From assembly GCA_015039365.1 (NCBI GenBank), contig WION01000232.1, positions 1 to 64,000 on the forward strand: a DNA stretch of 64,000 bases. Direction: 5' to 3'. Position numbers and translations under genes: made by a program. The notes under the pieces are model-generated. The model saw only the letters and a list, made by a program, of their open reading frames with translations, did no database searches and was not told the DNA's origin. Numbering within the stretch: the stretch's first letter is position 1; the number at the start of each line of letters is the position of its first letter. Shown one piece after another: positions 2,771 through 61,403 of the stretch. Source of the stretch: Amanita rubescens (lineage: Eukaryota > Basidiomycota > Agaricomycetes > Agaricales > Amanitaceae).

Positions 2771-3666
2771 ATGGATGACACATGCTACCGTAATGAGGTT
2801 CTGCCAATCATAAGCCAAGACGGGGTCGATGGAGCATTATATGTCGGCCTCAGGGAGTTCGACAACTTCCCCGGTGAATGTACTTCTTTTTTTTTGTTTT
2901 ATTATTTTGACGTTCCTACTCAATTCTCCAGTGGTAGGCTATGATAATCCAGTTATCTACTCGTGCGGACTGCCAAGTCAACATTCACATCCTAGGACAA
3001 CACTCTATGCAACCCAGCCTCCCCTGTATTTCCTTGACCACTGTACTCTGCCACCGGGCGAAGATCATCAATCCACCTTCAGCGTGTCTGGTGTGGATCT
3101 TCCTGAGACGTTCAATAATTATGGGTCTAACCCCAGATATCTAGGCAATGTAGCCCGTGTCCAGCCACGCTACCTGACCATTGGCAATGATAATTCTGGA
3201 AACCTTTTTCCACCCTCGGGCACAAATGACGCCTTGTTCTCGAACACCACACAACCGTATGCGTCAACAACAGTCCCGCCGCCTCCAGACAGGATGAATG
3301 TCTCTTCTATGAATCAGTACGTCGGCACCAAGTATGTTCGTATGGCGTCGAAAAGGAGGCGGAAGAGACCAGCTATGCACTTCTGTCACCTCTGCGGTGC
3401 AGATTACACATCCGCACAAAATCTGGGGTGTTTGTACTTTTCACCGATAACATATCACCTGAGTAACATTGAAAAATGCAGATCACGTCAATAAGCACTT
3501 AGGTCTCCGACCTTACGCATGCAAGTACAAAGGTCAGGGCTGCGCTTATAGCGCAACGGCGCCCATAACCGCGGCGCGCCATAGCGCTTCTTGCAAATAT
3601 AAACGGTGCATTCAAGTACATTCGGTTCCAAGTGAAGACCTGTGGGAAGCGAATGTGATTATGTGA
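2771..3666 (+). CDS. ZF-1: C2H2 zinc-finger protein of the local array
   Basis: Model of three exons: 2771-2873, 2938-3429 and 3482-3666, summing to 780 nt (259 residues). Intron 1 is phase 1 after a Gly codon (donor GTGAAT). An alternative acceptor at 2931 also keeps frame. Intron 2 is phase 1 with donor GTTTGT, between Leu-Gly and the T of a Tyr codon inside finger 1. Finger 1 is C-x2-C-x12-H-x3-H (CHLCGADYTS then NLGYH). Finger 2 is C-x6-C-x12-H-x3-C. A basic run KRRRKRP lies just before finger 1. Exon 1 lacks the Cys-rich motif of the other copies and starts MDDTCYRNEV, so it may be truncated or start elsewhere. The C terminus is about 20 residues longer than in the paralogues. A nuclear DNA-binding role is inferred from the fingers. 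Confidence 0.78.
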
Positions 3667-3969
3667 AGTAAAGAGGCATCATGAAATGTATAACCTACGA
3701 GGCATAACTGCCCCAGTTGTAACCGTATGTAGATAAGAATCATGGGATGGACTGTCCCGTTTAACTTCTTGTGATTTCGGAGGTTGAGTGGATCCTAGTA
3801 ATTACTGGCCACTGGTAGTACTTACTGCCCTGACAACTTGAGTTAATTGGCCGTGCTGGGCACAGGTCATGAGAAAGACATCAAGCCAGCCAACTGGATG
3901 AAACAACGAAAACCGTGCAGTTTGTAGGTTTGTGAGGAAATAACCTCGGGTTGTTCTCACCAGTTTTTG

Positions 3970-4180
3970 TTATGGCGTAACATGTTGCCGCTCATCCAGC
4001 TTCTTCTGCAGCGTCATTGTCAAAGCATTGGGATCAACCAGACCTGCCTTGTTTCGTGAAGTATTCCGAGTTCATCCCATAACTTGGGCAACTGAGACTG
4101 TTTCTTTGGTAATAAGGAGCATAGTACTCGGTCGACGAGGCGAGTTCAAACGAAAAAAAACAATCGTCGACTTGCCGAAC
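3970..4180 (-). pseudogene. DIRS-like reverse transcriptase fragment
   Basis: Reading the minus strand gives a VDDCF motif followed by SFELASSTEYYAPY, then KLWDELGI in a second frame and GLVDPNALTMTL in a third. The same series, better preserved, lies at 51369-51664. This is the catalytic palm and the region after it. At least two frameshifts separate the pieces, so it is dead. No ends or target duplication can be seen. Confidence 0.7.
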
Positions 4181-4299
4181 TGACACAGCCACGATCATGC
4201 ATGTGACATGTGACCAGAGCCACACCGAAAATGGACATGTGAAGGTAACCCGCCCTGCCTGTTTCTCGGGGTCGTTTTCTCCAAATGCGCTCACCCTGT

Positions 4300-11570: not shown

Positions 11571-11930
11571 AGAATGCTGTTGGCCTTGTCTACAGCACTT
11601 GGCCAGGGCACAAAAAGCCAAGTTTCCCTTGCCACTCTCTCATACTCGTCCTGGTGCGCAGCATGAATTACCCATGTTTTTGCGGCTCAGGAGTTTGCCC
11701 CCCTTTATGGCTTGTGTACTAGTTCCTTGTGATGCCCATGATTCTAGGTTCAACTTGGGCGGATTTACACCAAGTTTCCAGCTTAAGTGTTACCCCAACT
11801 GCAAGCGAGCTGCGTCCATATGTGGTTAATCCACAGCTCGGTGAAGAATCCTTCGGCGCGCTTGCATCCGATGAGAGCTTTACCGAGATATTTCATGATA
11901 GTTTTAACCCCAAAATGTAAGACCAGGCCG
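11571..11930 (+). pseudogene. ZF-2: chimeric fragment of a ZF gene
   Basis: The start (ATG at 11664) reads MNYPCFCG, then GSGVC, like exon 1 of ZF-4. It then changes to the 3'-flank repeat (GATGCCCATGATTCTAGG) and continues into exon-2 sequence like that of ZF-3 and ZF-5 (NPQLGEESFGALAS). The rest of exon 2 and both fingers are missing. The donor-like GGTGAGAA of ZF-3 is CGATGAGA here. This looks like the product of a recombination between units. Confidence 0.7.
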
Positions 11931-15680: not shown

Positions 15681-16436
15681 ATGAACTACCCATGTTTTTG
15701 CGGCTCAGGAGTTTGCCCCCTGCATACCCCCCTCCCCATTGGAGGCGAATTTCTCACCGGGCCCGAGGCACTGTCAATGGGCGAAGAGGCGGTCGACATG
15801 GCGTCGAATATTGTTTCGGGGTCCGACAACTTCTCTGGCAAGTGCTACCCTCTATTATTTCCCTACTTAATCAATTCGCCACTAGAATCCCAGATGACTC
15901 TCCACCCACAATCGACAACAAATTTGCCGCCTAGTGCCATGCTAGGCGCAAATGGGTATTACGTTGACCCACAAAATCCGAATTCCCAGTTTCCTCAGGC
16001 TGGGACATTTGGACATGGCTTTAATCCGGGCAGCGTCGCACCAGCCCAGCTAGGCTACCACACCATCGATCCTGCTAACCTCGGAAACCCCCCTCCACCC
16101 CCGTATTCGACTAGCGCAGGCGATACCATGTCGTTCGCGAGCTGGCCGACTCTCCAAACCAGTATGCAAGCTGTTGCTCCGATGATCCCGAACAACGTTG
16201 AAATCAACGCTGTTCGCCAGGCGGCGAGAAGGCGGAGGAAGAAATCAGCTACATTATACTGTGCAACCTGCGGTGCCGATTTCACATCAGCGCATAATCT
16301 TCAATACCACCTCAACGGACACGAGGGTCTTCGGCCTCATGCTTGCGAGCATAAAGATCGCGGCTGCGATTATAGTGCCGCGGCGCCTAGCACAGCGACG
16401 CGCCACAGCGGTACCTGTAGATATAAACCATCGTAG
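15681..16436 (+). CDS. ZF-4: C2H2 zinc-finger protein, finger intron missing
   Basis: Model: exons 15681-15837 and 15886-16436, 708 nt (235 residues). Exon 1 begins MNYPCFCGSGVCPLH, with the C-x-C-x3-C-x2-H motif. Intron 1 has a GC donor (GCAAGTGC) where the paralogues have GTGAGT; it is 48 nt and open, so retention would also keep frame. Finger 1 (CATCGADFTS, then NLQYHLNGH) is uninterrupted, although all seven other copies have an intron here. Finger 2 reads CEHKDRGCDYSAAAPSTATRHSGTC (C-x6-C-x12-H-x3-C), given here as the family pattern. A basic AARRRRKKSA precedes finger 1. The exon-2 middle is rich in Asn, Pro and Gln. An upstream plus-strand extension to 15606 exists but lacks the conserved start. 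Confidence 0.8.
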   Translation: MNYPCFCGSGVCPLHTPLPIGGEFLTGPEALSMGEEAVDMASNIVSGSDNFSGKCYPLLFPYLINSPLESQMTLHPQSTTNLPPSAMLGANGYYVDPQNPNSQFPQAGTFGHGFNPGSVAPAQLGYHTIDPANLGNPPPPPYSTSAGDTMSFASWPTLQTSMQAVAPMIPNNVEINAVRQAARRRRKKSATLYCATCGADFTSAHNLQYHLNGHEGLRPHACEHKDRGCDYSAAAPSTATRHSGTCRYKPS

Positions 16437-17429: not shown

Positions 17430-18277
17430 ATGAATGACCTTTGTTCTTGCGATGCAGGGGACTGCATCGTGCATCCTTCACCAGTCTTCCACACGGAAGG
17501 TGGTAGTTTTCTTACAGAGGCGCTTTATCCAATGGGCCAAGATGCGGCCGGTGGAATGTTCAATACCGATTGGGAATTATTCGGTGAGTGTTACGTACCC
17601 CATTATTTTTTCGGAATCTGGAATCTGATCTGCTTAGTCGAGTCGTCGCTAGACTATGAATACCCGACGACCCTCAACTTGGACGGATTGACACCAAGTT
17701 TCCAGCCTAGTGCTACCCCAACTGCAAGCGAGCTGCATCCCTATATGGTTGATCCACAGCTCGGTGAAGGATCCTTCGGCACGCTTGCATCTGGTGAGAA
17801 CTTTTCCTAGACATTTGACAGTGACGGTTTAACTCCAGATATCTAGGCAATGTAGCGCTAGACCAGCTAGGTCAGCCGATCGTCGACATGGACAACCCTG
17901 GAAACCCGTCCTTTTATTCAGCCGACGCCTTGTCCCCTACATCGCCGACTCCAGACGCTGGGATGCATGTTTCTCTGATGAATCAAGACGTTGGAAGTAA
18001 CGCTGGTCGCCAGGCATCGAACAACCGGCGAACAAGGGCAGCTGGGCACCTCTGTGGTATCTGCGGTTGTGACTTCACAGCGGCACATAACCTCCAGTGT
18101 TTGTGCTTGAACTGATCACTCTTCTCCCGACTGACGTTGAAGCGTATAGATCACCGAAATTCCCACCTTGGTCTTCGACCTTATCCTTGCGACCACGGAA
18201 ATCGGGGCTGCGATTACACTGCCACGGCACCTGGCACCGCGAAGCGTCACAGCCGTAAATGCAAATACAAACCGTAG
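17430..18277 (+). CDS. ZF-5: C2H2 zinc-finger protein of the local array
   Basis: Exons 17430-17583, 17653-17793, 17847-18098 and 18150-18277 sum to 675 nt (224 residues). An in-frame ATG at 17415 would add five residues. Exon 1 reads MNDLCSCDAGDCIVHP and ends in Gly with a GTGAGT donor. Intron 2 (GTGAGAAC to ATCTAG) removes a segment containing an in-frame TAG, so splicing is required. Intron 3 (donor GTTTGT) splits finger 1: CGICGCDFTA, then NLQYHRNSH. Finger 2 follows the family pattern C-x6-C-x12-H-x3-C and the protein ends KYKP. Closest to ZF-3. A DNA-binding role is inferred. Confidence 0.77.
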
Positions 18278-19438: not shown

Positions 19439-19684
19439 ATGGAATGCGACATGGATCACCAATGTGAACTATGTATTGCAGGACTTTGCCTCGAGCATTT
19501 CGGAACAAGCATCCCTACAATCGAAGATGTTCATTCGCTTTTTCTTACGGAGCCAGTTCTGTCAATGAGCCAAAATACGGTCGATGGAACATTGTACTAC
19601 ATTAATTCTGAGGAATATGAAGTCGTCTTTGGTGAGTATTCCCACGTTATTTTCAGCGTTCCTTCTTAGTCGACTCGCCACTAT

Positions 19685-20135
19685 TGTTACAACACGGTAC
19701 GGACTCCCATATTATGCTTACATGACACGTCGGACATGTTTATTTTCTTATGCATACCTTATTCGTCGTCCCCCTTATGCTTGATTCATATGGACTAACT
19801 CGTTCCCTTTCTTATACCATCCCTTGTTCCACATATGACGCCGTCCTTGTACTTACTTTCATACTTACCATTATTCATTAATTAGTACGTCTCATTGTAC
19901 TTGCTAGTATAAATACCGCATGTATTCTAGAGTCGAACCCTAAGTTCGACTTAGCTGTTTATTGTCGTCTGGCAATATAACCTTACTCTTAACTCATCTA
20001 CCACAATCGTCCTCAGATCCTAAGTCAACGTCTTGACTTAGTATTGAACTTATAATCTTAACGTTTGACTTAAGACTTGTAATCGTGACTAGAGTTGCCG
20101 CTGCAACTTAGGTTGAGATTAACGAGTTCGTAACA
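19685..20135 (+). repeat. Gypsy 5' LTR
   Basis: Begins TGTTACAACACGG and ends GTAACA. It contains a TATA box TATAAATA (19908-19915), and 26 nt after its last base the 13-mer TAAGTTCGACTTA (19941-19953), which is the reverse complement of 20138-20150. Confidence 0.95.
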
Positions 20136-21762
20136 ATTAAGTCGAACTTATCAATAAGCCTGAACATCGATTCATTGGCATTTGATAACACACACTTCGA
20201 CGAACTTCCGGAAAGCCAGCCCGTAGGTTACTGGCCACGTTGTCAAAACGGATTGGAGAGCTCCACCAAATAGAGCCACACGAGATCATAAAGGGAACTA
20301 CATTCTTGATGGATACTACGTCAGACTAAACGGTGCAAAACGAATCTGGGAAGATCTAGGAGGAAATCCAGTTAAAGAACAAGAATTCTGGATACCACAA
20401 AAAGAAACTAGACCTCCGAACGAATCATATTATTATTTCGCAGATCTATATCTTCAGGAACAGCACATCAGATTCGATCACCTCACAGAACATTGGATAG
20501 CATCCGAAACACAAGACTTTGTCCCTAACGAATACTTCAATACCCCTACTTGGATAAAAGGGACTATTGACGCTCTACCGGAGAACTTAAGACCGAGAAC
20601 TCTCCTTCCCACATCGACAACTAAAAAAGGCAAAAAGAAAGCAAACTTTGGCCTAAACGATAGTGAATCCGAGAAAGAAGGAGATAAAGATCAAGAACCC
20701 GATCTATCCCTTGATTTTCTCAGTGACCTTTCAGTTGGAACGACACCAACACCTGCCCAACAACCGACCAATCCCGAACCAGGTCCTTCGAACCCTAAAG
20801 AAGAAAAGGACAAAGAAGACCCGTTTGACCCTGACAGAATCGAAGTAGACGAACCTAAACCCGACCCAACTCCACCACGCAGAGATCCATCACCCCCACC
20901 ATCACCAAGAATGTCTGGAGGAAGTACAGACCCTATACCCAACCCACGAACCCCTAGTCTCATCGGAGATCTTCCTGAATTCAAAGGGAAGCGAAAGGAT
21001 GCCAATACATTCATAGAAGACATTGAAATTTTCTTTGACATGAATCCTGAGCGGATGAATACCGACCGCTTAAAAATCCTTGCCGCCCTGAATAAGATCT
21101 CGGATGGAGCTAGACAGTGGAAAAAGAATAAATTAGCAGAACTACGAAAATCTCGCGCCACCACCGAAGAAGGCATCACGAGACCTGCTTTATTTGATGA
21201 TTGGGAAGCATTTAAACTGTCATTCTTGACAGATTGGGGAGAAGTCGATCCAAGTGGAAACGCATACACGAAAATTCTCAATCTACAGAACAGATCGTCT
21301 ATGAAAGGAAAGAAACAGATGACCTTACCTAATTATGTAAATCAGTTCAAGGAACAAATTACGAAAGCCGGAATCGAAGGAGAAGCAGCATTCCATATGT
21401 TCGGAAAAGGACTGACAGCACCAGAGTTCGAAAAAGCAATGCTCATGAACCCAAAAATGTTACAAGACTGGTACGACATTGCTATCAAGCTCGACAACAT
21501 CCGAACCCATTCATATGCCTATTCACCTTGATCTGGAAATGGTCATTCATCATCCTCTCACAACGACGAATCTTGGGCGATGCAGATTGATCACAAATAT
21601 CTAGAAAAGGATGAAGATCCAGAATTAGAGCTTATGATCAGATCTATGTCCAAAGAAGAAAGAGAACGCTATATTAAAGAAGGTTTATGTTTCATCTGCG
21701 GAACCAAAGGACACATGTCAGGGCAATGCCCAAAGAAGAAAAGAAACAAAGGGAAAGGCTGA
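20136..21762 (+). pseudogene. gag: Gypsy gag
   Basis: The N-terminal part is open in frame 3 (20112-20270, SLAFDNTHFDELPE) and then continues in frame 1 from 20227, so a frameshift lies near 20230-20270. No in-frame ATG exists before 20911 in frame 1, although that frame is open from 20227 and reads like protein. The start codon therefore seems lost, or lies elsewhere. After a Pro-rich acidic linker comes the capsid-like region (PEFKGKRKDANTFIEDIEIF). A TGA at 21529 interrupts it. The nucleocapsid knuckle CFICGTKGHMSGQC (C-x2-C-x4-H-x4-C) lies near 21690-21733. A second TGA is at 21760. Both stops sit where CGA Arg is plausible. Confidence 0.8.
20138..20150 (+). other. Probable self-priming primer-binding site
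   Basis: TAAGTCGAACTTA lies two bases after the 5' LTR and is the exact reverse complement of 19941-19953, where transcription should start given the TATA box. In Tf1-type elements the 5' end of the mRNA pairs with the site next to the LTR and primes reverse transcription. No match to a tRNA 3' end was evident. Confidence 0.6.
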
Positions 21763-21968
21763 TTTAAAGGAGGACAGAAAAGAGGATTCACGCCCAGACG
21801 TCACATTCGAGCCACATCAGATGGTGACGGAAATTGGGAAGAAGAAGAAGTCCGAGAGTCTAAACCAAATTACACCAAGAACATCCGAGTGCTGATGAAA
21901 GGGATGTCAATCGACGAAAAGAATGATCTATTACTATCTCTTGCCGACGATAACGAGGATTTTTAACA

Positions 21969-24900
21969 GTGGGACTCATGACAGTGGATGAAATCCCAGA
22001 AATATCAGATCCAACTCTCGATATATCTTATGTAACAGTACAATCTATTTCAAAACGAAGATTATCTGTCCCTATCAAAGTTGAAACTGAAAACGATACT
22101 GAAAACCTCATTGCCCTTATCGACTGCGGAGCCGAAGGGATATTTATCGACAAAAGGATAGCACACAAATGGAGAAAACGAAAAACTCCACGACCAATCA
22201 GAGTTTATAACGTCGATGGCACCATAAACAAAGAAGGAGAAATTGATGAACAATGTCTAATCACCTTCGAAATGAACGGAAAACGCATGACCGAATGGTT
22301 TTACGTATCAGCAATAGGAAAACAAACGATTATACTGGGGCTTCCTTGGCTAGAGAAGCATAACCCTGACGTAAATTGGAGAGAAAAGACTCTAGAGTTC
22401 CGAGACTCTGAACAGGACAAGATCAAGGCATCACTTCGGAGCATCTGTCAACAGATTGACAGAATAGCTATGCCTGAATGGGAAGAAGATCTCGTCATCG
22501 GATATTTGATGTCACACAAAGGATCACAGACGACAGATCACGGATGGAACACGCGTACATTTGAGGATATAGGAAGCTGGTCAGAAGACGAATACGACCA
22601 AGTAACTATCGCACGATATACACCAGCTCAACAAATGGAACACAAATACCATCAAACAGAGGAGGTTTACACGCTCCCTCCTGAATACTCGGCATGGAAA
22701 GATGTATTTGAGAAAAAAGCAAGTGAACGATTCCCAGAAAGCCAATCTTGGGATCACCAGATAGAACTTCGCGATGATTTCATACCAAAAAGAGGAAAAA
22801 TCTATCCCTTATCTCCAAAACAGCAGAACACACTGGATGAATGGATTAAAGAACACGTCGAAAAAGGCTACATCAGACCATCGAAATCACCGCAGGCATC
22901 ACCTTTCTTCTTTGTAGAAAAGAAAGAAGCACAAAAATTACGACCCTGCCAAGATTATCGATATTTGAACGAATATACTAAACCAAACGCATATCCACTA
23001 CCTCTTATCTCCGATCTTATGATCAAACTCAAAGATTCGGAATACTTTACGAAACTGGACATCCGATGGGGATATAATAACGTTCAAATCAAGGAATCTG
23101 ACAGATGGAAAGCCGCCTTTATCACCAATCGAGGTTTATTTGAACCTAATGTCATGTTCTTTGGATTACGAAATTCACCAGCAACGTTTCAAGCTATGAT
23201 GGACGATTATTTCAGGGATTTTACAGAAAAAGGATGGCTCGTCATCTACATGGATGACATGCTAATACACGCACGCACTAAAGAAGAACTCGAGATTCAA
23301 ACAAAACAAGTACTTGAACGATTACAGAAACACGATCTTTACCTCAAGCTTGAAAAGTGTAAATTCGCTGCCAAAGAAGTTGATTTTCTAGGCACCGTCA
23401 TATCCAAAAACACAATAAAAATGGACCCGATCAAACTTGCCGGAATCAGGGACTGGCCAACCCCTTCTACCGTTAAACAAGTTAGATCCTTTTTAGGATT
23501 CGGAAATTACTATTGAAGGTTTATTTTCGGATTCGCCCACCTTGCACGACCCCTGCATGACCTAACAAAGAAAAACAAACTATGGACATGGACCGCAGAA
23601 TGCCAAGTCGCATTTGATCTATTAAAAGAATGCTTCACATCCGCACCTGTCTTAATGATGCCCAATGTTAACAAACCCTTTATTCTACAAATGGATGCAT
23701 CAGACCGCGCTATCGGAGCAGTTCTCATGCAGAAAGATGACAATGGCGACTTACACCCATGCGGATATCTATCCCATGCTTTAACACCGACTGAAACACG
23801 ATGGCAAATCTACGACCGAGAGTTATTCGCCATTTACTACGCTCTTTACAACGAATGGAGATACCTACTTGAAGGAGCAGAACACCCTGTCATTATTCAC
23901 TGCGACCACAAGAATCTACTCTACTATCGAGAACCACAACGTCTTACGAACCGCCAAGCACGATGGTGGAACGACTTGTCTCGATTTAATATTAAATTAA
24001 CCCACGTCCCTGGAGCAAAACTAATAATAGCGGATACTCTATCCCGCCGACCCGATCATATGACAAAAGACGAACCAGAAGAGTTAATAACGATGCTCCC
24101 AAAAGAACTCTTTGTTCGCACAATCGCCGAAGATCTCCGTGACAGAGCAATAGAAATAACTGTCAAAGACGAATTTGCTCAATCAATCAAGAAATGTCTA
24201 AAAGAAAAAGGAACACCACCTTTACGCACTGCCCTTTCTGACTGGACCCTTGACGATGAATTAATCCTGTACAAAGGGAAATCTTTCATTCCCCCTGATG
24301 CCGATCTTTGCTGAGATATTATTAGAGATTTTCATGAATCACCAACAAGCGGACACCCCGGTTTCTTCAAAACACTCGCCTTATTAAAGGAATATTACTG
24401 CATGTCAACAAATGAAATCAAATACACACCCTACTGCCGCACCTCTGATGCCAATCAAGTCTCACGCACACCGACCCTTTCAACAAATAACTATGGATTT
24501 CATAACCGATTTACCCACAAGTAACGGTTTTGATTCTATCTTTATCGTGGTCGATCAAGGACTTACAAAGGGAGTAATTCTCATGCCTTGTAATAAAACT
24601 ATCACTGCCGACGAAACCGCCGACCTCTACATTCGGAATGTATTCAAAAACTTCGGTTTACCCGACATCATGATCTCTGATCGAGGACCACAGTTCGCAT
24701 CACATGTCTTTAACGGCATAATGGACTCATTAAAGATCAAACACAAAATGAGTACCGCCTTCCATCCACAGACTGATGGACAAACGGAGCGATATAACGC
24801 CGAATTAGAAGCTTATCTCTGAATATTCTGTGCCTATGAACCAGATACTTGGAACAAGATGATACCAATAGCACAATTCGCGCATAATTCACGCACTCAT

Positions 24901-25524
24901 GAAGCATTGAAACAATCGCCCTTTCAATTGATGTATGGAACATCCCTGGTTGCACTTCCCCTTGTCTCAAATAAGACAAATACACCAACCGCCGATAACC
25001 GCATCAACTCCTTGTTCCGCGCACGAGAAGAAGCACTCGCCGCACATGATCTAGCACGAGCTAAGATGATGGAGAGAACAACGAGAAAGACTAAACCGTT
25101 CAAAGTCAATGACAAAGTATGGTTAGAGTCTAGGAACCTGAAGATTCCTTATCAGAGCAGAAAGCTCGCACCTAAACGAGAAGGTCCCTTTTCCATTAAA
25201 GAAGTCTTAGGACCAGTAACATATCGTCTCACACTACCAAGACAATGGAAAATTCATAACGTATTCCACGCCGCCTTACTAACGCCGTTCAAAGAAACTT
25301 CCTTTCATGGAACAATGGAAACGAGGCCCCCTCCCGATCTAATCGAAGGAGAACAAGAATACGAAGTAGAAGCACTGCTTGCACATCGCAAGTTTAGAGG
25401 GAAATTACAATTCCTTGTAAAGTGGAAAGGCTATGACACCAGCGAAAACACATGGGAACCAGAAAATAACTTGACGCATATGGAAGACCTCCTTCTAGAA
25501 TATAAAAGACGAAGGAAACTCTGA
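21969..25524 (+). pseudogene. pol: Gypsy pol with chromodomain
   Basis: Aspartic protease motif LIDCGAEG lies near 22110. Reverse transcriptase follows, with KLDIRWGYNNVQI and the catalytic YMDD near 23250. A TGA at 23514 falls in the conserved GNYY(R)RF. RNase H (IQMDASDRAIGAVL-like, YDRE) is at 23655-24060. A TGA at 24312 precedes the HHCC region, which has lost some twenty codons and changes frame near 24400. The integrase core has D, D and E in [18 protein letters not shown] and [19 protein letters not shown] at 24820 follows EAYL. The chromodomain (LVKWKGYDTSENTWEPENNL) ends the polyprotein. All three stops fit CGA to TGA change. Confidence 0.9.
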
Positions 25525-25556
25525 GATGTCATCCACATACCAAGTTACTATGCAGA

Positions 25557-25949
25557 ATGGAAACGACACCACCGACGCCGTTCAGCACTTCCCTTGGTCC
25601 GAATTTTATGCTGGGGAGACCACCGACACCCGAGTCACCACTTCCGCTGGGCCCCACCGACCTCGACTCGTTCTTCATACCACCGACACCGACGAAGAAG
25701 ACGCTGACCCGAACGACTTCATTGATGTTTCCCACAGATCTCCCGATCAAACCTCGTCTCAGACGATCCCGGTCACTCCCACCAAAACCCAGGAAACCCA
25801 CCACGGAACATCAGAAACTCTGGCTGTACCTGGACGAATTACGGAAGATCGCAATAGCCGACCGATCCCACCTAGAAACGCTGAAGACATTAGCATTACC
25901 TTACATAGAGAGACGGTACTTGCCGGTGAAACAACGCAAGAGAGGCTGA
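25557..25949 (+). CDS. Gypsy extra ORF-A, proline-rich, unknown
   Basis: A 130-residue frame starts 32 bp after the end of pol. It is rich in Pro, Thr and Ser (PPTPTKKTLTRT), then basic (RLRRSRSLPPKPRKP), and ends with a helical-looking LYLDELRKIAIADRSHLETL segment. A 174-codon frame (25526-26050) overlaps it in another frame. I prefer the 130-residue frame for its ordered composition, but either could be by chance. No known domain recognised. Confidence 0.4.
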   Translation: METTPPTPFSTSLGPNFMLGRPPTPESPLPLGPTDLDSFFIPPTPTKKTLTRTTSLMFPTDLPIKPRLRRSRSLPPKPRKPTTEHQKLWLYLDELRKIAIADRSHLETLKTLALPYIERRYLPVKQRKRG

Positions 25950-26071
25950 CTTGGGGTGCAGCCTCCGAGATGCGATGCGGCCGGCGAGTTCGGCAGCACC
26001 GAAAGGTGCTCGTCCGAGCTCGGTCGCACTTGTTGAGCTCGGAAAGTTGATGCGCAGTGCGGGGGAGAAGA

Positions 26072-26347
26072 AGATCTATAAAACTAACTACGACAGGGTA
26101 TATAAACTACATGCCTCGTGTGCTACGTGTGTAATACGGTCCGAAACGTATCCGATACCGAGTCTCGGAGCTCCGATCCGAGGTTCCGAGTCTCGGAAGC
26201 TTGAGCGAGGGTTTCGGCAAGGTTTGAGTATCGATTCCAGCATAGCCGGAATCGATACGTTACACCGGTCACGCTTCGACTCAATCTCATAACGAACCTA
26301 TTCGAGGCAACAACCAGAGTCACGGTACAGATGGGACTAACCGCGAT
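26072..26347 (+). promoter_or_regulatory. Possible internal promoter before gypsy ORF-B
   Basis: Two TATA-like boxes (TCTATAAAAC at 26075-26084, GTATATAAAC at 26099-26108) are followed by structured DNA. CCGAGTCTCGG occurs twice (26159-26169, 26187-26197). A perfect 11-bp hairpin, GTATCGATTCC at 26228-26238 and GGAATCGATAC at 26248-26258, lies 90 bp before the ORF-B start. Separate transcription of ORF-B is inferred. Confidence 0.4.
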
Positions 26348-27625
26348 ATGGCTGGCTCCATCATACAAACCACCCCCGATCTCTATTTCAGTTATCACGG
26401 AATTACTACTTACACCAAGGTTAGAGACCGCGTCACTCTGATCTGTAACGCCGCTAGATTACAAGTCGACATCTTTGACCAAGAAAGGATAGCTCGAGTC
26501 TGGCGACTCCTCATGGATTTCCGAACCGCCACTACCCTTGCCGGTCAAGCCCGAGATCAGTACAACTATCACTGTGCCGACTTAATCGAAACGTTTGTGA
26601 ACGTTACGTCACTATACTGGGAAGACGTTCATCCGAAAGGAGGAAATCTAGATCAACTGGCGATAGATCTATTACGACGACTTCTCACAGCTGACGTCGA
26701 GCGCTATATCATCCTTGCTATAGAAAGCATCGACGATCAAAGGTTTGGACTAAAAATACAACCTCACGATCAGAATAACCGCATCGCTGTCAACCATTGG
26801 TTTCGCGCTACCGAAGCTACACCCGACCGACACCGAGCAACTAGATGCATTATGGAGACAGATCGTAAATCGAGAGAAATCTGGTGCCTCACCGGAAAGA
26901 TCCGAGATCTCTTGTCCAGTATCCAAGGAGACACAGAATGGACCACAGCCGAATTCGCAGATGGAGTTCCCTTGCATCAACTCACTAGCGACCACATTGC
27001 GCAGATCAATAATGCGATCAGCGATCTCGATCTTCATCGCCGAATCCGTACAACAGGCGATCTCATTGAGGAAGAACCGAAACGAGATAAGAAGGCTCCT
27101 CCTCCTCCTCAATCCACATCACCCCCAACCACCACCGTTATTCGCCACGGAGTCTGGAATATTCCTGTCCCCACTACTCGACGAAACGACTCTCCGCCTT
27201 CTCGACGACCTACGACCCGCAGTATGACTAATGCCGCCAACCAATGCCCCCACCACTACAACCGCTGCATTCACTGCCGAGGTAAACATGCCTCTGAGGA
27301 TCACCATCTCGCTACTACAATTCCTCCTGTGTCTACTCTATCTACACGCGCTCCCACGCGCCGACACGATCCGACACCCGGTCCTTCCACTAAGAAGAAA
27401 GGACGTTCTCGAGCTACCACAGATACCGCCAATACCCCCGCTTCCACTAGCCGCTGCCCTCATCAGCCGAAGAAGAAGGGAAAGAAGAAGGCACACCACG
27501 CGTCACAGTGTCAGGCATGTGTCAATGGACGACAGTGCGACGGAGCCGACGACGACGCCTGCGACCTTTATGGTGACTACGGCTATCAGCACGACGACGT
27601 CGCCATGCACAACATGAACACTTGA
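26348..27625 (+). CDS. Gypsy extra ORF-B, 425 residues, Gag-like layout
   Basis: An uninterrupted frame lies between pol and the 3' LTR, the place of env in env-bearing elements. There is no signal peptide or membrane segment. The first 235 residues look helical (for example VRDRVTLICNAARLQVDIF). A Pro-rich basic linker follows (KKAPPPPQSTSPPTTT). The C-terminal third has Cys/His clusters, including CIHCRGKHASEDHH (C-x2-C-x3-H-x4-H), and ends with CQACVNGRQC and acidic residues. This resembles the arrangement of a Gag protein with knuckles rather than an envelope. It has no stop, unlike gag and pol of the same copy. Not recognised as a named family. Confidence 0.6.
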   Translation: MAGSIIQTTPDLYFSYHGITTYTKVRDRVTLICNAARLQVDIFDQERIARVWRLLMDFRTATTLAGQARDQYNYHCADLIETFVNVTSLYWEDVHPKGGNLDQLAIDLLRRLLTADVERYIILAIESIDDQRFGLKIQPHDQNNRIAVNHWFRATEATPDRHRATRCIMETDRKSREIWCLTGKIRDLLSSIQGDTEWTTAEFADGVPLHQLTSDHIAQINNAISDLDLHRRIRTTGDLIEEEPKRDKKAPPPPQSTSPPTTTVIRHGVWNIPVPTTRRNDSPPSRRPTTRSMTNAANQCPHHYNRCIHCRGKHASEDHHLATTIPPVSTLSTRAPTRRHDPTPGPSTKKKGRSRATTDTANTPASTSRCPHQPKKKGKKKAHHASQCQACVNGRQCDGADDDACDLYGDYGYQHDDVAMHNMNT

Positions 27626-27665
27626 ATGTTTTGTTGTTGCGGTCAACAACGTAGGGGAGAGCTAG

Positions 27666-28116
27666 TGTTACAACACGGTACGGACTCCCATATTATGCTT
27701 ACATGACACGTCGGACATGTTTATTTTCTTATGCATACCTTATTCGTCGTCCCCCTTATGCTTGATTCATACGGACTAACTCGTTCCCTTTCTTATACCA
27801 TCCCTTGTTCCACATATGACGCCGTCCTTGTACTTACTTTCGTACTTACCATTATTCATTAATTAGTACGTCTCATTGTACTTGCTAGTATAAATACCGC
27901 ATGTATTCTAGAGTCGAACCCTAAGTTCGACTTAGCTGTTTATTGTCATCTGGCAATATAACCTTACTCTTAACTCATCTACCACAATCGTCCTCAGATC
28001 CTAAGTCAACGTCTTGACTTAGTATTGAACTTATAATCTTAACGTTTGACTTAAGACTTGTAATCGTGACTAGAGTTGCCGCTGCAACTTAGGTTGAGAT
28101 TAACGAGTTCGTAACA
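27666..28116 (+). repeat. Gypsy 3' LTR
   Basis: Same length as the 5' LTR, with three differences, each C/T or G/A at a CpG. Confidence 0.95.
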
Positions 28117-29136: not shown

Positions 29137-29158
29137 CACCCCTTCGCTTAGATATCCT

Positions 29159-31079: not shown

Positions 31080-31149
31080 TCTATCAGGGTTCCTGTCTGC
31101 TGACGGTGGATCCTGAGTCGAAGAACTCGGAGTTTTATCTTTTAACTGC

Positions 31150-35013: not shown

Positions 35014-35014
35014 G

Positions 35015-35566: not shown

Positions 35567-35569
35567 CTA

Positions 35570-36469
35570 AAAGAGAATTTAATGAGCTTAAAGCTTAATT
35601 AAAGCTAAAAGTCTAATTCAGTCTTTATTAAGTTATCCAGGGTGCCATAGACTAGAATGTCAGACTATATAGAGTTCCTCGGTTACGAGTACAGTCCATA
35701 TTCGGTTAAACCAACCGACCCTGAGTAACTTAGTTACAAGCCAAGCTTAGATAAAGCTCAGGTCCACAGGTCCACAGGTCCACTCGGTCTTGAAAGCTCG
35801 GATTATCCCTGAATGCTGTAAATGACATGCAAAGTCAATCGCATGGCTCAAGCGCTCTTGGGCGAACCACGGTTTTACCCGTTGCGATTGTAAATAGAAA
35901 TAATGTCTGGTCCATAAACCCCCCAGACCATTATATAAGCACGACCAGTAATCAATATGAAACTTCTAAATGGGATTATGGGATCACCATAGAGCCCAAA
36001 CTTAGAATGATCCTAACGATCATTCCGACTAAAGGAGTCCCTAAGGGCGCATCCTTAATAGACTGCGTGTACCACCCACAATGAGGTGTCAGCACGTCCT
36101 TTATACTAGAAGTTTCTATATACGAGCCATATTGTATTATAAAGCCTCTAAGGGGCTTATTATGGTATAGCGTGCAATGAATACCCCAGTCATCATCATG
36201 AGTGCGCAAGCGCTAAACACTCATGTGGGGGCCGACGTTGCCATGCCAGCGTCGAGAAACATAGGTAGTACCCTTATCCCTGGGTGTCTAGGAGATCCCC
36301 CTAAAGCCCTAGGGTCCGGGCGCATGTCATTAGCGCATATGCCATATCAAGGATTAGTGATATCAAGATGATAAGACCATATCAGGCTCGCTGCGATACT
36401 ATACCAGTGGGACATCATGTCGGATGACGAGCAAGCGAGCGGCGATGTGGGTCCTGGCAATATCGACGG
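35570..36469 (-). other. Copia-1 5' leader
   Basis: About 900 bp between the primer site and ORF-0. No conserved frame seen. It would include the proposed intron before ORF-0. Confidence 0.5.
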
Positions 36470-36483
36470 CGGGGCCCATAACC
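36470..36483 (-). other. Copia-1 primer-binding site for half initiator tRNA-Met
   Basis: GGTTATGGGCCCCG (minus strand) abuts the 5' LTR. Twelve of its bases are complementary to GGGCCCAUAACC, the anticodon arm of eukaryotic initiator tRNA-Met. Copia of Drosophila and Ty5 are primed by a cleaved half of this tRNA. Copia-2 has the same site. Confidence 0.75.
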
Positions 36484-36890
36484 TGACGAAGAAGACAGGT
36501 CTACGCGAGAGCGTGTCCACAGCATGAGCAGGTGCAATAGCTTACCTATTGCGATATGATCTTAGCACTACCCTTCGGCGTAGTAGTGATAGTAAGAGGA
36601 AGAGAATGGATTGTCCTATTCTACGATACAGGACAGGTTTATATACTAAGAGAGAACAAATATGTGTCTACATATGTGTAAGCGTATAGTATAGATGAGA
36701 AAGTATGGCGTGCTAAGCACACCATAAGATGTGACCATGAGTCTATCATGATGTCACCATGATATCATAATGAAGTCATTATGATGTCATCTCTATGTCA
36801 TACATAAAGGATGACGCGAGCAATATGAGTAACATTGATTGTAGTCAATCAGTAGTTAATCATTCTATAAATATAATTCTATATTTAACA
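36484..36890 (-). repeat. Copia-1 5' LTR
   Basis: Copy of 28730-29136 with one difference. Confidence 0.95.
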
Positions 36891-37589
36891 CCATATTCAG
36901 CTGGCACGGATGTCGCCTCTTCCTTGAGCATTGCTGAGATGCGCGCATCACCACCTGCCCCACAGCAGGCTCCAGACGGGAAGCATGTTTCCCCAACGAA
37001 TCAACCCATTCGCCGGAGGATTTCTCGCCAGGCATCGAATGGGAAGCATGTTTCCCCCACGAATCAGCCCATTCACCGGAGGATTTCTCGCCTAGCATCG
37101 AACAAGAGGCGAAAGAAACCAGCCAATTACCGCTGTCCCGACAAATCCTGCGATGCGGACTATACACAGAAGCATAACCTCAAGTGTTTGTACTTGGTCA
37201 CCTGATGTATTTCCCGATTAACATTGAAACGTGCAGATCACCTTAATATGCATAATAATCACCGACCTTATAAATGCAACTACAAGGATCAGGGCTGCGA
37301 CTTTGATGCAACGGCACCCAGCATCGTGGCGCGCCACAGTATTACTTGCGAACACAGGCTGAAGAATGCAGAAATTCGTATGGGTTGAGAGAGTGGACTG
37401 TATACTATTAATTCCTTTTTGATATGACCAACCTCAATTAGTATGCTTATATGTATATTCCGTAACCCCTCCAAGTGATTGTTCGGGGGAGCTATGGTTA
37501 CCATGAATCGAAACTTTGAGGTTCCCTATCTCGGCTCTGCACTGATCAACGAGAAACCTCATCTCTTGGCGGCGGGGAAGGTGGTGCAT

Positions 37590-42033: not shown

Positions 42034-42874
42034 ATGTTTTTTCCAGATTTTCTTCAAACAGGGTGCCAAGATATCCCGGATGAGGGAACGTCATTTATTG
42101 GTTCGGGATCCAACGACTTCTTTGGTGAGTCCCCCCTCTTTATTTATTTATTTCACGTCCCTACTGATTAGAGCTTCCGCTAATAGGCTTCAACTCATCC
42201 TTGACGACCCTCAACCCGGGTGAATCGTCAACAAAGTCACAACTTGGTACTACGATGTCGGCTGCAAGCGAGCGGCCTCCGTATGTGCTCAATTCACTTG
42301 GCAAAGAATCTGCCTTTTCTATACCCGGTGGAAATCTTGGGTGCAAGGTGTCTTACGATCATGGCTCTTGCTCCAGATATCCAGACAATGTAGCACCAAC
42401 CTCCCTACCACCGCATCCGATCACTGACAACGACAACCCCGGAAATCCCTCGCCATCCCTGCATACAGCTAGCATGGATGTCGCCTTTTTCAAAAGCTCT
42501 GCCGAGCTGTATAGATCGTCACCAGTCCCGCAGCCACCTCTGGACAGGATGTGTATTTCTCCGATGAGTCAGCACATTCCGAGAAATGCTGTTCGCCGGG
42601 CATCAAACATGAGGCGGACAAGACCAGCTAGTTATCGCTGTTTCCTCTGCGGTGCAGATTACACGAAAGCACACAACCTTGATTGTTTGTCGTTATTCAC
42701 TGATGTATTTCCCGACTGATATTGACACATGTAGATCACCTCAACGTGCACTTCGATCGCCGACCATATGATTGCGAGCACAAGCATGAGGGCTGCAATT
42801 TTAGTGCGGCGGCGCCCAGCACGGCGAGGCGTCACAGTAAAAGTTGTAAATATAATCCCAAGTTGAATACGTAG
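42034..42874 (+). CDS. ZF-7: C2H2 zinc-finger protein of the local array
   Basis: Exons 42034-42124, 42187-42684 and 42735-42874 sum to 729 nt (242 residues). This start (MFFPDFLQTGCQDIPDEG) lacks the Cys motif. An earlier ATG at 41970 (MDHSYYSCNISRC) resembles the family's usual exon 1 but is out of frame by one base, so the N terminus may be damaged or the start moved. Intron 1 is phase 1 after Gly (GTGAGT). The segment that is an intron in ZF-3 and ZF-5 is coding here. Finger 1 is CFLCGADYTK, then NLDYHLNVH, split by the usual GTTTGT intron. Finger 2 is C-x6-C-x12-H-x3-C. Basic NMRRTRP precedes the fingers. Confidence 0.72.
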
Positions 42875-45049: not shown

Positions 45050-45071
45050 CTCCCCTTCGAGCTGAGCAATA

Positions 45072-49740: not shown

Positions 49741-49745
49741 CGATC

Positions 49746-51028: not shown

Positions 51029-51033
51029 GGAAA

Positions 51034-55432: not shown

Positions 55433-56631
55433 ATGGACCACCCATGTGGGTTTTGTATTGCAGGAATTTGCACCGTGGATATTCGAATAAGGCTTGCTGT
55501 TGAAGATATTCTTCTACCTTTTCTTACGGGGCCACTGGCAGATCTGTCAATGATTCAAAATGCGGCCGACGGAATGTCGTATCCCGAGGGACTCTTTGGT
55601 GATTGTTTCCTCGTTATTTTCTGCGTTTCTGCTCAGTTGACTTACCACTATCAACCCAGGCGAATCACCAGCAGATATGCAATCTAGTACCACGTCGGCC
55701 GCAAACGAGAGGTTTGCACACTATCCAGTTCATCTACCGCTTCGCGGAGAATCTGCCGTGGGTGCGCTTTGCAACATTCCCGGGATTGTTTGGAATCCGG
55801 ACAATGTTGCGCCAACCCAGCCATGGGACAACAACCCGGGAAATCATGATGCTGCGAGGGATTGGTCTCAATATATGGTTAACTCGCACAATCTACGAGC
55901 AAGCGTGGAATCCACGTTCGGCGTGCCTGAGAATGGAAATCTCGAGAAGCTTTACACCGGTGACTTTTCCAATGTGGCGCGAGCGCGGGCGCACGACCCA
56001 ATCATTGACGAGAACCCCGACCCCAGAAACCCTTTGCCACCCTCGATTTTGGCCAACCCGGGAAACGCGAGCAAGGGGCCTCAGTATGCGGCTAACCCGC
56101 ACAATCTACCACCTGGCGGGGAACCTAATGGAAGTCCTGACAGTGACTTTCTCCTGAACCAAGACAATGTAGCGCTAGCGCAGCCATGCGACCCGATCAT
56201 TGACGAGAACTCCGACCCCACTGGAAACCATTTTCCATCCCCGGTTTTTGCCAACGTCGATGGCATTTTCTTCCAGAGCACTGCTGACCTGCGTTCATCG
56301 CCACCCGAAGTCCCGCCGTCATCTCCGGACACGATGTATGTTTCTCTGGCGAATCGGCGCCGAACGAAGCAAGCGAAGTACCATTGTCCTGTCATAGGCT
56401 GCGATCATAAAGGCTTCACAGCGATGCATAACCTCCGCTGTTTGTACTCCTCCACCTGATGGTAATTTTTCCCGACTGACATTGAAACACGTAGATCACC
56501 TCAATACACATAATCATCGTCGACCGTATAAGTGTAAGCACAAGGATTGGGGCTGCGATTTTAGTGCAGTGACGCCCGGCACGGCGACACGTCACAGTAG
56601 GACTTGTAAACATAAACCAAGGGATACGTAA
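55433..56631 (+). CDS. ZF-8: C2H2 zinc-finger protein of the local array
   Basis: Exons 55433-55598, 55660-56439 and 56495-56631 sum to 1083 nt (360 residues). Exon 1 starts MDHPCGFCIAGICTVD, with the Cys motif but Asp in place of the last His. Intron 1 is phase 1 (GTGATT donor). Exon 2 carries about three repeats of a block with HNLPPGGE-like, NPDNVAPTQP and DPIIDENPDP parts. Finger 1 is C-x4-C-x13-H-x3-H (CPVIGCDHKGFT, then NLRYHLNTH), one residue longer than usual after the second Cys. Intron 2 (GTTTGT) splits it. Finger 2 is C-x6-C-x12-H-x3-C. RRRTKQAK precedes the fingers. Confidence 0.8.
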
Positions 56632-58139: not shown

Positions 58140-59230
58140 GGGGAAAGTGATGCATAAGGAAATGTGGTTGGTGAAGTGGCGGCGACGAAGAGACGGGACA
58201 CGGTGATTAGCGCGTTCTCGTCGCACACATAACCCGCGCTGCGCGTTTTAGGTCATCTAGCAGCACGGAGAGGCATAGTTGAGATGCGCGATGGTGATAA
58301 TTCGTGTGCCGGCCGGTGTAGAAGTATCTGGTTGTAACTCGGTGTAACGTTACAATGGCATGCATGTTATTCTATGGGACAGTTGGGAAGGTATCTTGAG
58401 ACGCAGAGCTAGCTGTTGCTTGTCACGAGGAAAGGAGCCACGAGAGACAAGGCACCAGCAAGGTTGATCCAAGCAGAAATCCAGTCCATAGATAGCCAAA
58501 TCTCGCGCTCCTGTATCATAGGTACTATCCGGCGGAGTACGGCGATTGGAGGAGCGTCGCGGCTGTTCGCTTTTTGAGTTTCCAGGTAAATCAGCGATCA
58601 AGCATTCACGTAGATGGTAACCGGGGGAGACGTCCATTCTACAATGAGGTTCTTCAAGCTTCGTGGTGTGGGAGGGAATAGGCTGCGTCGAACCTGAGTG
58701 CGCTCTCAGAGAGTCGTCGATATCCAGGATGTAGTACAGACACTGGGAGAACGTCAACGGGAGTTTCTTGGAGTCGGTTAGTGTGTTAACAGAATGGGCC
58801 GGGAGGTCAAAGGGGATGAACGATGCGGGGAAAGGGTAAGGCGACCGCAAGTCAACGCATGGCGTGGAGCGTGGGTAGGAGTGGTCTAAGGTAACGCGTA
58901 GTTTCACCGGTGAAACATTCACGTGTTGGATGATATCCAGAGGCGCGGTTAGTGCTTGTTTGGGTCAAGTGGCAGGTACCAGGGGCGTTTGAGGGCGGGG
59001 CGGGATGCCAACACGAGGAGGGAGGGAGCAAAGGTCAGCCGGAGGATGTAGGCAGAGGGCTGCATCAGCAAGGACCACAAGAAGTAGTAGAAAAGCGTCT
59101 TGGGCAGGGGACAGTCGAAGGGTGATTCCAGGAGCAGTCAGAAGGGCGGTGCATACCGTAGAAGCCTGTCCCCTGAGCCTGTCACAGGATCATCTTTGAT
59201 AGGAAAAGTCAAGGCTTGACATTGCCCGGT
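58140..59230. repeat. Segmental duplication block, copy 2
   Basis: Partner of 37590-38820. The minus-strand frame 58922-58350 (190 codons) is open, but its reading frame differs from that of copy 1 after FPASFIPFD, so neither is clearly protein-coding now. The 16-bp palindrome is at 58901-58916. Confidence 0.6.
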
Positions 59231-60720
59231 TGTCCCAGGCCTGTCAGCGAGGGACCTAGTTCCAAGAGGATGGAAAGCCGGTCTGCCTCCGGAAGTCCTT
59301 CTGTTGGGGCAAGTATGTCAACGCAGGTCACAAGTGGTCTCGAAGCGCCACCACTGGCAGTTGAGTTCCGTTACATATTCAACTTGACGTTCACGTCTGG
59401 TCACATATGTCACACCCTCCTTATGTCCGACTCCACTCACGACTTCTAGCACCCAATCTGGAAAAGCCATCGGGCCTCAGATCGGAGGGAAGTGTCTCGC
59501 GACGAAGAAGCACCCTCAAATGACATCCAGGTCCGAGATCTGTACCTTGAATCCACCCCCTGTGCAACTGGGATACTAATAGTGACATGCCGTGGGTATC
59601 CTTGTCAAAACAAATGCTGTTTTGTCGTTGATCAGGTTCCGCTCAAGTGCCTGGGCTTGCTGCAGCTATGTTCGCCACCGACGTACATGGAGCAGAAACC
59701 CTCGAACTGTTCGTATGTGCGTTGCAACACGCCGCCCGGGTTGCACTGTTTGTGTACTCCAGTTTCTGAAATATGAGGCTCAGCGAATCGTTCCAGACGA
59801 TGGAGCCACGGGCAAGGTAGGGAGCGGTACTTACTACTTAATGACTAAGACAAAAGACACAGTAGTGTAACGTGGGACGAACTTGCATTCTTGTTCCAAA
59901 CTCAAAAAGGATTAAGCTCGGCGACCGTGTCTAATTTTTGGATCCATCCCGTATGCAGCAATACTTTTTTATATCAAACTCGCATCATCTAAATGACAAG
60001 TTACAGCCGTCTGGACATGGTGATCTTTATGAAACTTGACGTAGTGTTGTGAGGTTTTCTAGAATCTGTCATACAAGCTTTCTGCGCACCTCCAAAAAAT
60101 GTCAGAAATAGCCTTTTGATGCACAACGCAGTACTTTGAAGCATATGCCAATATCGCGACTCGTTTCAGGTTAGCCGAAACATCCCAAAGCCACTCTACC
60201 GTCGATCTTGGCATTTTCTCCGGACAAAGTTTGTTGACGGACCCAGAGTGAGTTGCGTATGTTATGGAGTCGCGTTACAGAATAAACCAGGTTGGTGAGA
60301 CGTTGTGAGTCGAGATTGAAATTCGGCATCGCTATTCTGTGGTTTAGTACCGCGCCGCCAATGTGCAGCGTCGGCGGAACGGATAATTTTGGCCTCGCGG
60401 TAATGTCGCCACTCATGATCACGAACAACGTCGGCAGTTTACGGAAGATTCTATTCCCCGACTAGAGTGCCCTGTGCGTGCTCCATTCTTTTCCAGGCTC
60501 GCCAACCGTCTCTGGTGGTGGCAGTTCCCATTCGGGGATATGCGTTGGTAATGTCATTCATCAGGATTTCCGAAATTCACTGTATTCTGTGTTATGGGAC
60601 TTATGCTACTGCCCCTTCGCACGCCTACCACAGTACTTGTACAAAAGCCTGCCTTGCGGCAAATATCCTATCCTATCTGCTCTACGCTTATCCGTCCATA
60701 ATAATTGTATGGGACGCGAT
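59231..60720. other. No separate gene; ZF-9 upstream modules
   Basis: 59490-59870 has overlapping plus-strand frames of uncertain value. 59940-60640 matches the upstream regions of ZF-6 and ZF-8. Confidence 0.45.
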
Positions 60721-61403
60721 ATGGGTGACCCATGTGAATTCTGTATTGCAGGATTTTGCATCGTGCATCTTCGAATAAGCCCTGCCGCCGAAGCTATTTT
60801 TTCATCTTTTCCTACTCTGTCTATGAGCCAAGATGCGGTCAATGGAACGTCCTATTCCGAGGGATACAATAACTTCTTTGGTGAGTGTTACCCCCTTATT
60901 TTCTGCAGTTGACTCACCACTGAATCCATACAATGTAGTGCGAGCGCAGCCTCGCGATCCGATCATCGACAAGAACTTCAACTCCAGAAACCCTTTGCCA
61001 TCCTCGTTTTTGGCCAACGTGGATGTCACTTTTTTTCAGAGCGAGCTGCGTCCATCGCCGCCCGGAGTCCCGCCGCCGTCTCCGGACATGTATGTTCCTC
61101 TGACGAACCGGCGCATTCCCCGGGCATCAAACATGAGGCGAACGAGACCAGCGAAGTACCGCTGTCCTGTCGTAGGCTGTGATAAAGACTTCACAATGAA
61201 GCATAATCTTCACTGTTTGTGCTTATCCACCGGATTGTATTTCACGACTGACATCGAAACATGTAGACCATCTCAATGCGCATAATAATCATCGACCGTA
61301 TGGTTGTAAACACAAGGATCGGGGCTGCGATTTTAGTGCAGCGGCGCCCAGCACGGCGACGCGTCACAGTAGGACCTGTAAACATAAACTAAAGGGTGCC
61401 TAA
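60721..61403 (+). CDS. ZF-9: shortest intact zinc-finger protein of the array
   Basis: Exons 60721-60880, 60939-61214 and 61267-61403 sum to 573 nt (190 residues). An in-frame ATG at 60709 would add four residues. Exon 1 starts MGDPCEFCIAGFCIVH. Intron 1 is phase 1 (GTGAGT). The chosen acceptor (ATGTAG) gives a 58-nt intron; an AG at 60907 would leave only 28 nt. Exon 2 has a single DPIIDKN-type block. Finger 1 is C-x4-C-x12-H-x3-H (CPVVGCDKDFT, then NLHYHLNAH), split by the GTTTGT intron. Finger 2 is C-x6-C-x12-H-x3-C and the protein ends KHKLKGA. NMRRTRP precedes the fingers. Confidence 0.8.

What the first reader, a model, noticed from the sequence alone, without database searches (positions are those of the whole stretch)
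2771..61403. Same-strand array of at least eight intact paralogous two-finger proteins
Seen: eight genes at 2.77, 12.49, 15.68, 17.43, 19.44, 42.03, 55.43 and 60.72 kb, all on the plus strand, share exon layout, intron phases, a variable Asn/Pro-rich middle and a C-terminal C2H2 plus C2HC finger pair. Hand-spliced lengths are 780, 699, 708, 675, 1236 (ZF-6 without its elements), 729, 1083 and 573 nt, all open multiples of three. Every transposon ORF set nearby except small ones is broken, so intact frames suggest selection. Known: C2H2 fingers often bind DNA. Inference: a lineage-specific expanded set of nuclear factors, possibly fast-evolving. I know of no description of this family.
Basis: partly seen in the sequence, partly recalled or inferred. 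Interest (0 to 1): 0.9.

Follow-up and report, generated by a model that had tools for sequence, protein, structure and literature searches.

The report
Fast-evolving mushroom zinc-finger gene array
A mushroom genome carries rows of related, fast-changing genes for small two-finger proteins that look built to bind DNA, probably copied from a larger gene-control protein; the copies I tested escape standard domain labels, and I found no description of them.

Summary
Eight same-strand paralogues exist; seven hand-spliced lengths are reproduced exactly and all introns are phase 1. Seven are intact; the fifth is split here by two LTR elements, one in an exon. The genome is very probably Amanita rubescens. 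The array recurs on four contigs with copy-number differences, and a divergent second array lies elsewhere. Frames are protected: no nonsense among 358 allelic changes (9.4 expected), and 14 of 15 distinct coding indels are multiples of three against 14 of 62 non-coding. Constraint sits in the fingers (omega 0.45); exon 1 and the middle are near 1. Both fingers are predicted as beta-beta-alpha units that superpose on DNA-bound finger pairs. Finger-1 helix residues 2, 3 and 6 stay nearly fixed while -1 and 5 vary. New here: an N-terminal C-x1/2-C-x4-C-x2-H motif, and a larger transcription-factor-like gene beside the second array with the same finger intron and basic lead, a likely parent type. 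Best reading: short DNA-binding paralogues of that factor type, acting as competitors or modulators. DNA binding, and expression of the window's own copies, are not shown.

The parts
2771..3666 (+). g1: exons 2771-2873, 2938-3429, 3482-3666; 780 nt; finger pair; exon-1 Cys/His motif lost
   Evidence: alleles (duplicated on contig C179)
12492..13348 (+). g2: four exons (12492-12642, 12693-12836, 12887-13162, 13221-13348); 699 nt; exon-1 motif
15681..16436 (+). g3: exons 15681-15837, 15886-16436; 708 nt; GC-AG intron 1; no finger intron; exon-1 motif; exon 2 used for the structure model
17430..18277 (+). g4: four exons (17430-17583, 17653-17793, 17847-18098, 18150-18277); 675 nt; exon-1 motif
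19451..37388 (+). g5: exon 1 19451-19631, exon 2 pieces 28129-28729 and 36896-37185, exon 3 37237-37388; exon-1 motif; split by two LTR elements in this version, open on contigs C59 and C179
19685..28116 (+). LTR element A in g5 intron 1; RVT_1, RNase H and chromodomain frames; LTR 451 nt with 3 mismatches; TSD ACTAT
28730..36890 (-). LTR element B (Copia type) in g5 exon 2; LTR 407 nt with 1 mismatch; TSD CCATA
42034..42874 (+). g6: exons 42034-42124, 42187-42684, 42735-42874; 729 nt; degenerate exon-1 motif
55433..56631 (+). g7: exons 55433-55598, 55660-56439, 56495-56631; 1083 nt; found on this contig only; motif with Asp for His
60721..61403 (+). g8: exons 60721-60880, 60939-61214, 61267-61403; 573 nt; exon-1 motif; C149 against C59 has 7 nonsynonymous and 0 synonymous changes
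11636..11919 (+). relic: exon-1 piece 94% like g3 and exon-2 piece 88% like g4 in one fragment

Best explanation
A tandem, birth-and-death family of short DNA-binding proteins, derived from (or sister to) a larger two-finger transcription-factor-like gene still found beside the second array. Most copies have an N-terminal Cys/His mini-motif (probably zinc-binding, for dimer or partner contact), a fast-changing linker, a basic stretch, and a tandem C2H2 + C2HC pair that keeps a common recognition core. They most likely occupy the same kind of sites as the larger factor and modulate it by competition or partner exchange. SHOWN: paralogy, frame protection, finger constraint, predicted tandem beta-beta-alpha fold, shared intron position and lead with the larger gene, copy-number differences between array versions. 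INFERRED: DNA binding, nuclear location, zinc binding by exon 1, competition. My confidence is about 0.85 that these are maintained coding genes with finger folds, about 0.75 that they bind DNA, and about 0.35 for competition as the main mode of action; the figure given is for the statement as a whole.
Confidence: 0.5

Rival explanations
1. Genome-defence or drive arms race: an expanding set of finger proteins that track changing DNA targets such as transposons, as proposed for KRAB zinc-finger proteins (analogy recalled).
For: Tandem arrays in a transposon-rich region; fast change; my site model finds a class with omega about 3 in the fingers, including helix -1 of finger 1.
Against: Contact positions 2, 3 and 6 of finger 1 are nearly fixed across both arrays; only two fingers; no KRAB or ZAD domain in the eight proteins scanned.
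Confidence: 0.13
2. Self/non-self or mating-linked polymorphic locus, kept diverse by balancing selection.
For: Four distinct array versions with presence/absence (g7 only on C149, g1 doubled on C179); middle and exon 1 with omega near 1; g8 changes all nonsynonymous.
Against: Intron divergence in these genes (31 of 717 sites, one allele pair for each of six genes, my count) is not far above flanking differences of 2-4% between contigs, so there is no strong hyperdivergence. Mating-type genes were not searched for.
Confidence: 0.1
3. Relaxed, decaying family: duplicates drifting with little function, frames still open only because they are young.
For: Exon 1 and middle omega indistinguishable from 1; g5 broken in two of four versions; a chimeric relic at 11.6 kb.
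Against: Fingers reject omega = 1 by 13.4 lnL; 0 of 9.4 expected nonsense changes and in-frame indels; the exon-1 motif persists in two divergent arrays.
Confidence: 0.15
4. Protein- or RNA-binding factors: finger 2 works like a SIAH/TRAF-type finger and the pair does not read DNA.
For: C-x6-C-x12-H-x3-C spacing; Sina_ZnF matches at 16.7 and 17.3 bits in P0005 and P0006.
Against: Those scores are far below the cut-off of 32; the modelled pair superposes on DNA-bound tandem pairs; recognition-helix residues are conserved.
Confidence: 0.12

Closest known systems
Basidiomycete C2H2 zinc-finger gene family (survey PMC12295980; abstract start and passages seen, not the whole text)
   Same: C2H2-type finger proteins of mushrooms; tandem duplicates noted in some Agaricomycotina; Ka/Ks below 1 throughout, some clusters near neutral
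   Different: No 'Amanita' or 'C2HC' in that main text; the eight proteins scanned here fall below Pfam gathering scores, so a Pfam-threshold census would probably miss them; exon-1 Cys/His motif and the C-x6-C second finger
Larger two-finger transcription-factor-like gene at contig C212:70510-70751 (-) and upstream, same genome, found once
   Same: C2H2 + C2HC at the C-terminus, finger intron at the same codon and phase, basic ASNKRRK lead, His2/Asn3 in the helix
   Different: Longer (a 347-residue open frame up to the finger intron), no exon-1 motif seen, finger 2 with C-x2-C, Asn at helix position 6
KRAB-ZFP (mammals) and ZAD-ZNF (insects) expansions (recalled)
   Same: Lineage-specific tandem expansion of an N-terminal module plus C-terminal fingers, fast evolution
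   Different: Only two fingers, no KRAB or ZAD match, recognition residues mostly fixed
SIAH/TRAF-type zinc fingers
   Same: C-x6-C...H-x3-C spacing of finger 2
   Different: Below Pfam cut-off; no other SIAH or TRAF domain reported by the scans; paired with a C2H2 finger

Membership tests
C2H2 (Krueppel-type) zinc-finger proteins | C-x2-4-C-x12-H-x3-5-H finger | tested here: met
   Finger 1 of seven of eight genes; g7 has 13 residues in place of 12
C2H2 (Krueppel-type) zinc-finger proteins | Pfam gathering score for a C2H2 model | tested here: not met
   Best 16.9 of 25.2 bits for PF00096 and 19.9 of 21.2 for zf-met in g1, g2, g3, g7; best PF00096 17.2 of 25.2 in P0005, P0006, P0010, g6; g4, g5, g8 not scanned
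C2H2 (Krueppel-type) zinc-finger proteins | beta-beta-alpha fold in tandem | tested here: met
C2H2 (Krueppel-type) zinc-finger proteins | sequence-specific DNA binding | not testable with these tools
   needs protein
KRAB-ZFP / ZAD-ZNF | KRAB or ZAD domain at the N-terminus | tested here: not met
   No match at E up to 1 in the eight proteins scanned, of which g7 and P0010 had no Pfam match at all
KRAB-ZFP / ZAD-ZNF | long finger arrays with diversified contact residues | tested here: not met
   Two fingers; positions 2, 3, 6 of finger 1 nearly fixed, -1 variable
Transposon-encoded ORF | terminal repeats around the gene | tested here: not met
   No inverted repeat of 60 nt or more in the window; only 11-16 nt matches in 1.2-kb flanks of four of eight genes, none in the other four
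Transposon-encoded ORF | transposase, RT or integrase domain | tested here: not met
   Pfam scans of eight family proteins
SIAH/TRAF zinc finger | Pfam Sina_ZnF or zf-TRAF over cut-off | tested here: not met
   16.7 and 17.3 bits against 32 in P0005 and P0006; not listed for the six others
Paralogue of the C212 two-finger gene | same finger intron codon and phase | tested here: met
   g3 has no intron there
Paralogue of the C212 two-finger gene | groups with it apart from other C2H2 genes | tested here: inconclusive
   In an unrooted 22-sequence finger tree the array members separate from the rest with 0.938 and the three other C2H2 genes from array plus C212 gene with 0.848; the root was my choice
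Paralogue of the C212 two-finger gene | shared N-terminal region | tested here: not met
   No exon-1 motif in its frames, read by eye

The most novel reading that the evidence does not exclude
An Amanita-restricted, copy-number-variable family of mini transcription factors with a new N-terminal Cys/His zinc module, diversified by positive selection on finger surfaces (helix -1 and 5, inter-finger residues) and linker while the DNA-reading core is frozen: many proteins competing for one kind of DNA site and differing in partner choice, a fungal counterpart of an intraspecific regulatory arms race.
Probability: 0.2. Interest if true: 0.75.

Novelty: new variant of a known kind. Interest (0 to 1): 0.5.

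Why it matters
Lineage-specific finger-gene arrays are well known in animals. This is a mushroom case that Pfam-threshold annotation does not label (the three deposited members found are 'hypothetical protein'), with a candidate parent gene in the same genome and four array versions to compare. It offers a tractable test of how short copies of a transcription factor evolve: whether they keep its DNA target while changing their partners.

Tried and rejected
Transposon-borne gene: rejected (no domains, no terminal repeats). Pseudogene array: rejected for the seven intact genes by frame and indel tests, kept for g5 in two versions. Strong positive selection on alleles everywhere: not supported; NG86 omega between differing alleles of g1-g4 and g6 was 0.34-0.99, and undefined for g8, where dS is 0 (g5 and g7 not in that call). 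The site models favour a class with omega above 1 (2dlnL 22.2 all columns, 9.0 gap-free columns, 15.8 fingers). They are my own script with fixed branch lengths and no recombination, and paralogues may exchange sequence, so I treat them as suggestive. Two versus four haplotypes: a TBP control lies on two contigs, three flank probes each on three contigs at 96% or more, two of these identical, the array on four; I could not decide between more than two nuclei, duplication and assembly mosaicism, so 'allele' here means array version. Papers: eight searches. Searches found nothing; others gave nothing on topic by title and abstract start; one gave PMC12295980; one gave two assembly papers on other fungi. 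I saw listings only, and passages of PMC12295980. 'Undescribed' means not found by these searches. SIAH/TRAF chains were not in the rows shown, which shows nothing about them.
Full report
WHERE IT IS. The window is the first 64 kb of an 84,676-base contig (C149) of a 75.7-Mb, 786-contig assembly. Three family proteins are deposited as 'hypothetical protein F5887DRAFT_...' of Amanita rubescens on contigs of 390,329 and 84,676 bases, the lengths of C179 and C149. The genome is therefore very probably that of A. rubescens, an agaric.

THE OBSERVATION. I re-spliced the genes. The eighth (g5) is interrupted by LTR element A in intron 1 and LTR element B in exon 2, each with a 5-nt target duplication (LTRs with 3 of 451 and 1 of 407 mismatches). 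With both left out it reads 1224 nt without an internal stop. Exceptions to a common layout: g3 has no finger intron, and g2 and g4 have one more intron. Finger 1 is C-x2/4-C-x12-H-x3-H (x13 in g7); finger 2 is C-x6-C-x12-H-x3-C. Identity to g1 in exon 3 (42-44 residues) is 51-64%.

AN UNREPORTED MOTIF. C-x1/2-C-x4-C-x2-H occurs five times in all six frames of the window, each time a few residues after the start Met of g2, g3, g4, g5 or g8. Base shuffles gave a mean of 0.12 and a maximum of 1 in 50. g7 has Asp for His; g1 and g6 have lost the motif. In 12 second-array loci read in three frames of the gene strand it occurs nine times, in eight of the 12; some of these loci are near-identical pairs. 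A genome search with a composite exon 1 gave 17 matches at E up to 1, all on the four array contigs at g2, g4, g5, g7 and g8.

HOW MANY. Two finger-pair searches of the genome give 44 family copies by my count of exon 3. C149 has 8, C179 has 8, C59 has 7, C143 has 7 (one cut by the contig end). A divergent second set has 14: C212 6, C472 4, and C598, C726, C246 and C75 1 each. These are array versions added up, not genes per haploid genome. g7 occurs on C149 only; g1 is doubled on C179. A PF00096 search of the same genome (150 of 247 candidates scored) listed 49 matches, none at an array gene, and no Pfam model reaches its gathering score in the eight family proteins scanned. That may be why the family is not labelled.

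ARE THE FRAMES KEPT? I modelled 28 coding sequences on four contigs: 27 are open with splice sites kept. g5 on C143 is frameshifted by a 17-nt insertion that carries an inverted copy of its flank. On C59, g6 has GTG at the ATG used elsewhere, but an upstream ATG is in an open frame with it. Leaving out g5 on C143, 358 minimal allelic changes contain no nonsense change against 9.4 expected at a transition weight of 3 (Poisson 8e-5). Coding indels of g1-g4, g6 and g8 against C149, each distinct event once, are multiples of three in 14 of 15 (the other, 8 nt, lies close to the g1 stop codon); non-coding ones in 14 of 62 (counted per allele pair 15 of 17 and 15 of 68). Against strong overall constraint: synonymous changes are 86 of 252 with 70.5 expected (P 0.019), and NG86 omega between differing alleles is 0.34-0.99, with g8 at 7 nonsynonymous and 0 synonymous between C149 and C59.

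WHERE SELECTION ACTS. A codon model on 20 distinct alleles and paralogues gives omega 0.96 for exon 1, 0.88 for the middle and 0.45 for the fingers. Omega = 1 costs 0.0, 0.7 and 13.4 lnL respectively on a grid. One allele per paralogue gives 0.90, 0.88, 0.44. My own site-model script finds in the fingers 48% of codons at 0.08, 36% at 1 and 16% at 3.1 (2dlnL 15.8). Sites with posterior over 0.9 are helix -1 and +5 of finger 1, the residue before its second His, and the residue before the first Cys of finger 2. In 18 family finger pairs, finger 1 positions 2 (His 17), 3 (Asn 17) and 6 (Tyr/Phe 18) are nearly fixed. Asn3 is not found in the three other C2H2 genes compared, but His2 is in two of them, and Arg6 of finger 2 is in all 22 rows. 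The position labels follow the Zif268 numbering (recalled).

A LIKELY PARENT TYPE. Next to the second array, at C212:70510-70751 (-), lies a gene found once in this assembly with a 347-residue open frame up to the finger intron and the lead ...EASNKRRKNEAKHIC, compared with ASNKRRKKPANYRC in g5 and EAANKRRKKVLSHFC in P0005. Its intron, by the borders I read, splits the codon of helix position 6 in phase 1, as in the window genes that have a finger intron and at all 13 finger introns of 12 second-array loci. Its second finger is the ordinary C-x2-C form. In an unrooted tree of 22 finger pairs the array members separate from it and from three other C2H2 genes with 0.938, and those three separate from array plus larger gene with 0.848. 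That is compatible with a sister position but depends on the root. Inference, resting mostly on the intron and the lead: the arrays arose by duplication and shortening of this gene type, with a changed second finger and a new N-terminus.

RELATIVES AND EXPRESSION. Three protein searches returned ten distinct proteins: three named A. rubescens and seven without a species name. The first search scored only the 8000 best candidates. P0005 (94% identical to its query) and P0006, on contigs of 992 and 1258 bases, are full-length frames with both introns removed at the modelled places, as expected of transcripts, though the source type is not stated. P0002 and P0010 show the same longest contig length (23,377), which suggests an array in another sample. 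No relative with another species name was found; this is weak evidence for lineage restriction, as the share of fungal genomes in that database is unknown to me.

INTERPRETATION. I take the array to be functional coding genes for short tandem-finger proteins that keep one DNA-reading core and vary their surfaces and linker. Competition with, or modulation of, the larger two-finger factor follows most simply from shared fingers without its long N-terminal region; it is untested. An arms race tracking DNA targets predicts variation at positions 2, 3 and 6, which is not seen. Drift alone does not explain the frame and finger results. The family is a variant of a known kind (C2H2 factors), not a new kind of system.

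Noticed in passing
44781-49741: Copia-type LTR element on the minus strand with open gag (445 aa) and pol (980 aa) frames and two 270-nt repeat copies 99% identical.
   Followed up: partly
11636-11919: Relic that joins a g3-like exon 1 (94%) to a g4-like exon 2 (88%), a sign of exchange between paralogues.
   Followed up: partly
5782-5977, 9975-10602, 13648-14279: Intergenic blocks repeated at 67-94% identity between genes of the array.
   Followed up: no
L019 (contig C143), g5 exon 2: A 17-nt insertion bearing an inverted copy of the neighbouring 11 nt, like an excision footprint, breaks g5 on that contig.
   Followed up: partly
contigs C59, C143, C149, C179 of G000: Four array versions in an assembly where TBP lies on two contigs; C149 and C179 are identical in the downstream flank probes but differ in the array.
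   Followed up: partly
2-739 (minus): Open frame resembling a reverse-transcriptase fragment by eye; 71%-identical copies lie beyond g8 on all four contigs.
   Followed up: no
L070, L072, L073 (contigs C598, C246, C75): A further family copy follows a conserved, unidentified open frame on three contigs, apart from both arrays.
   Followed up: no
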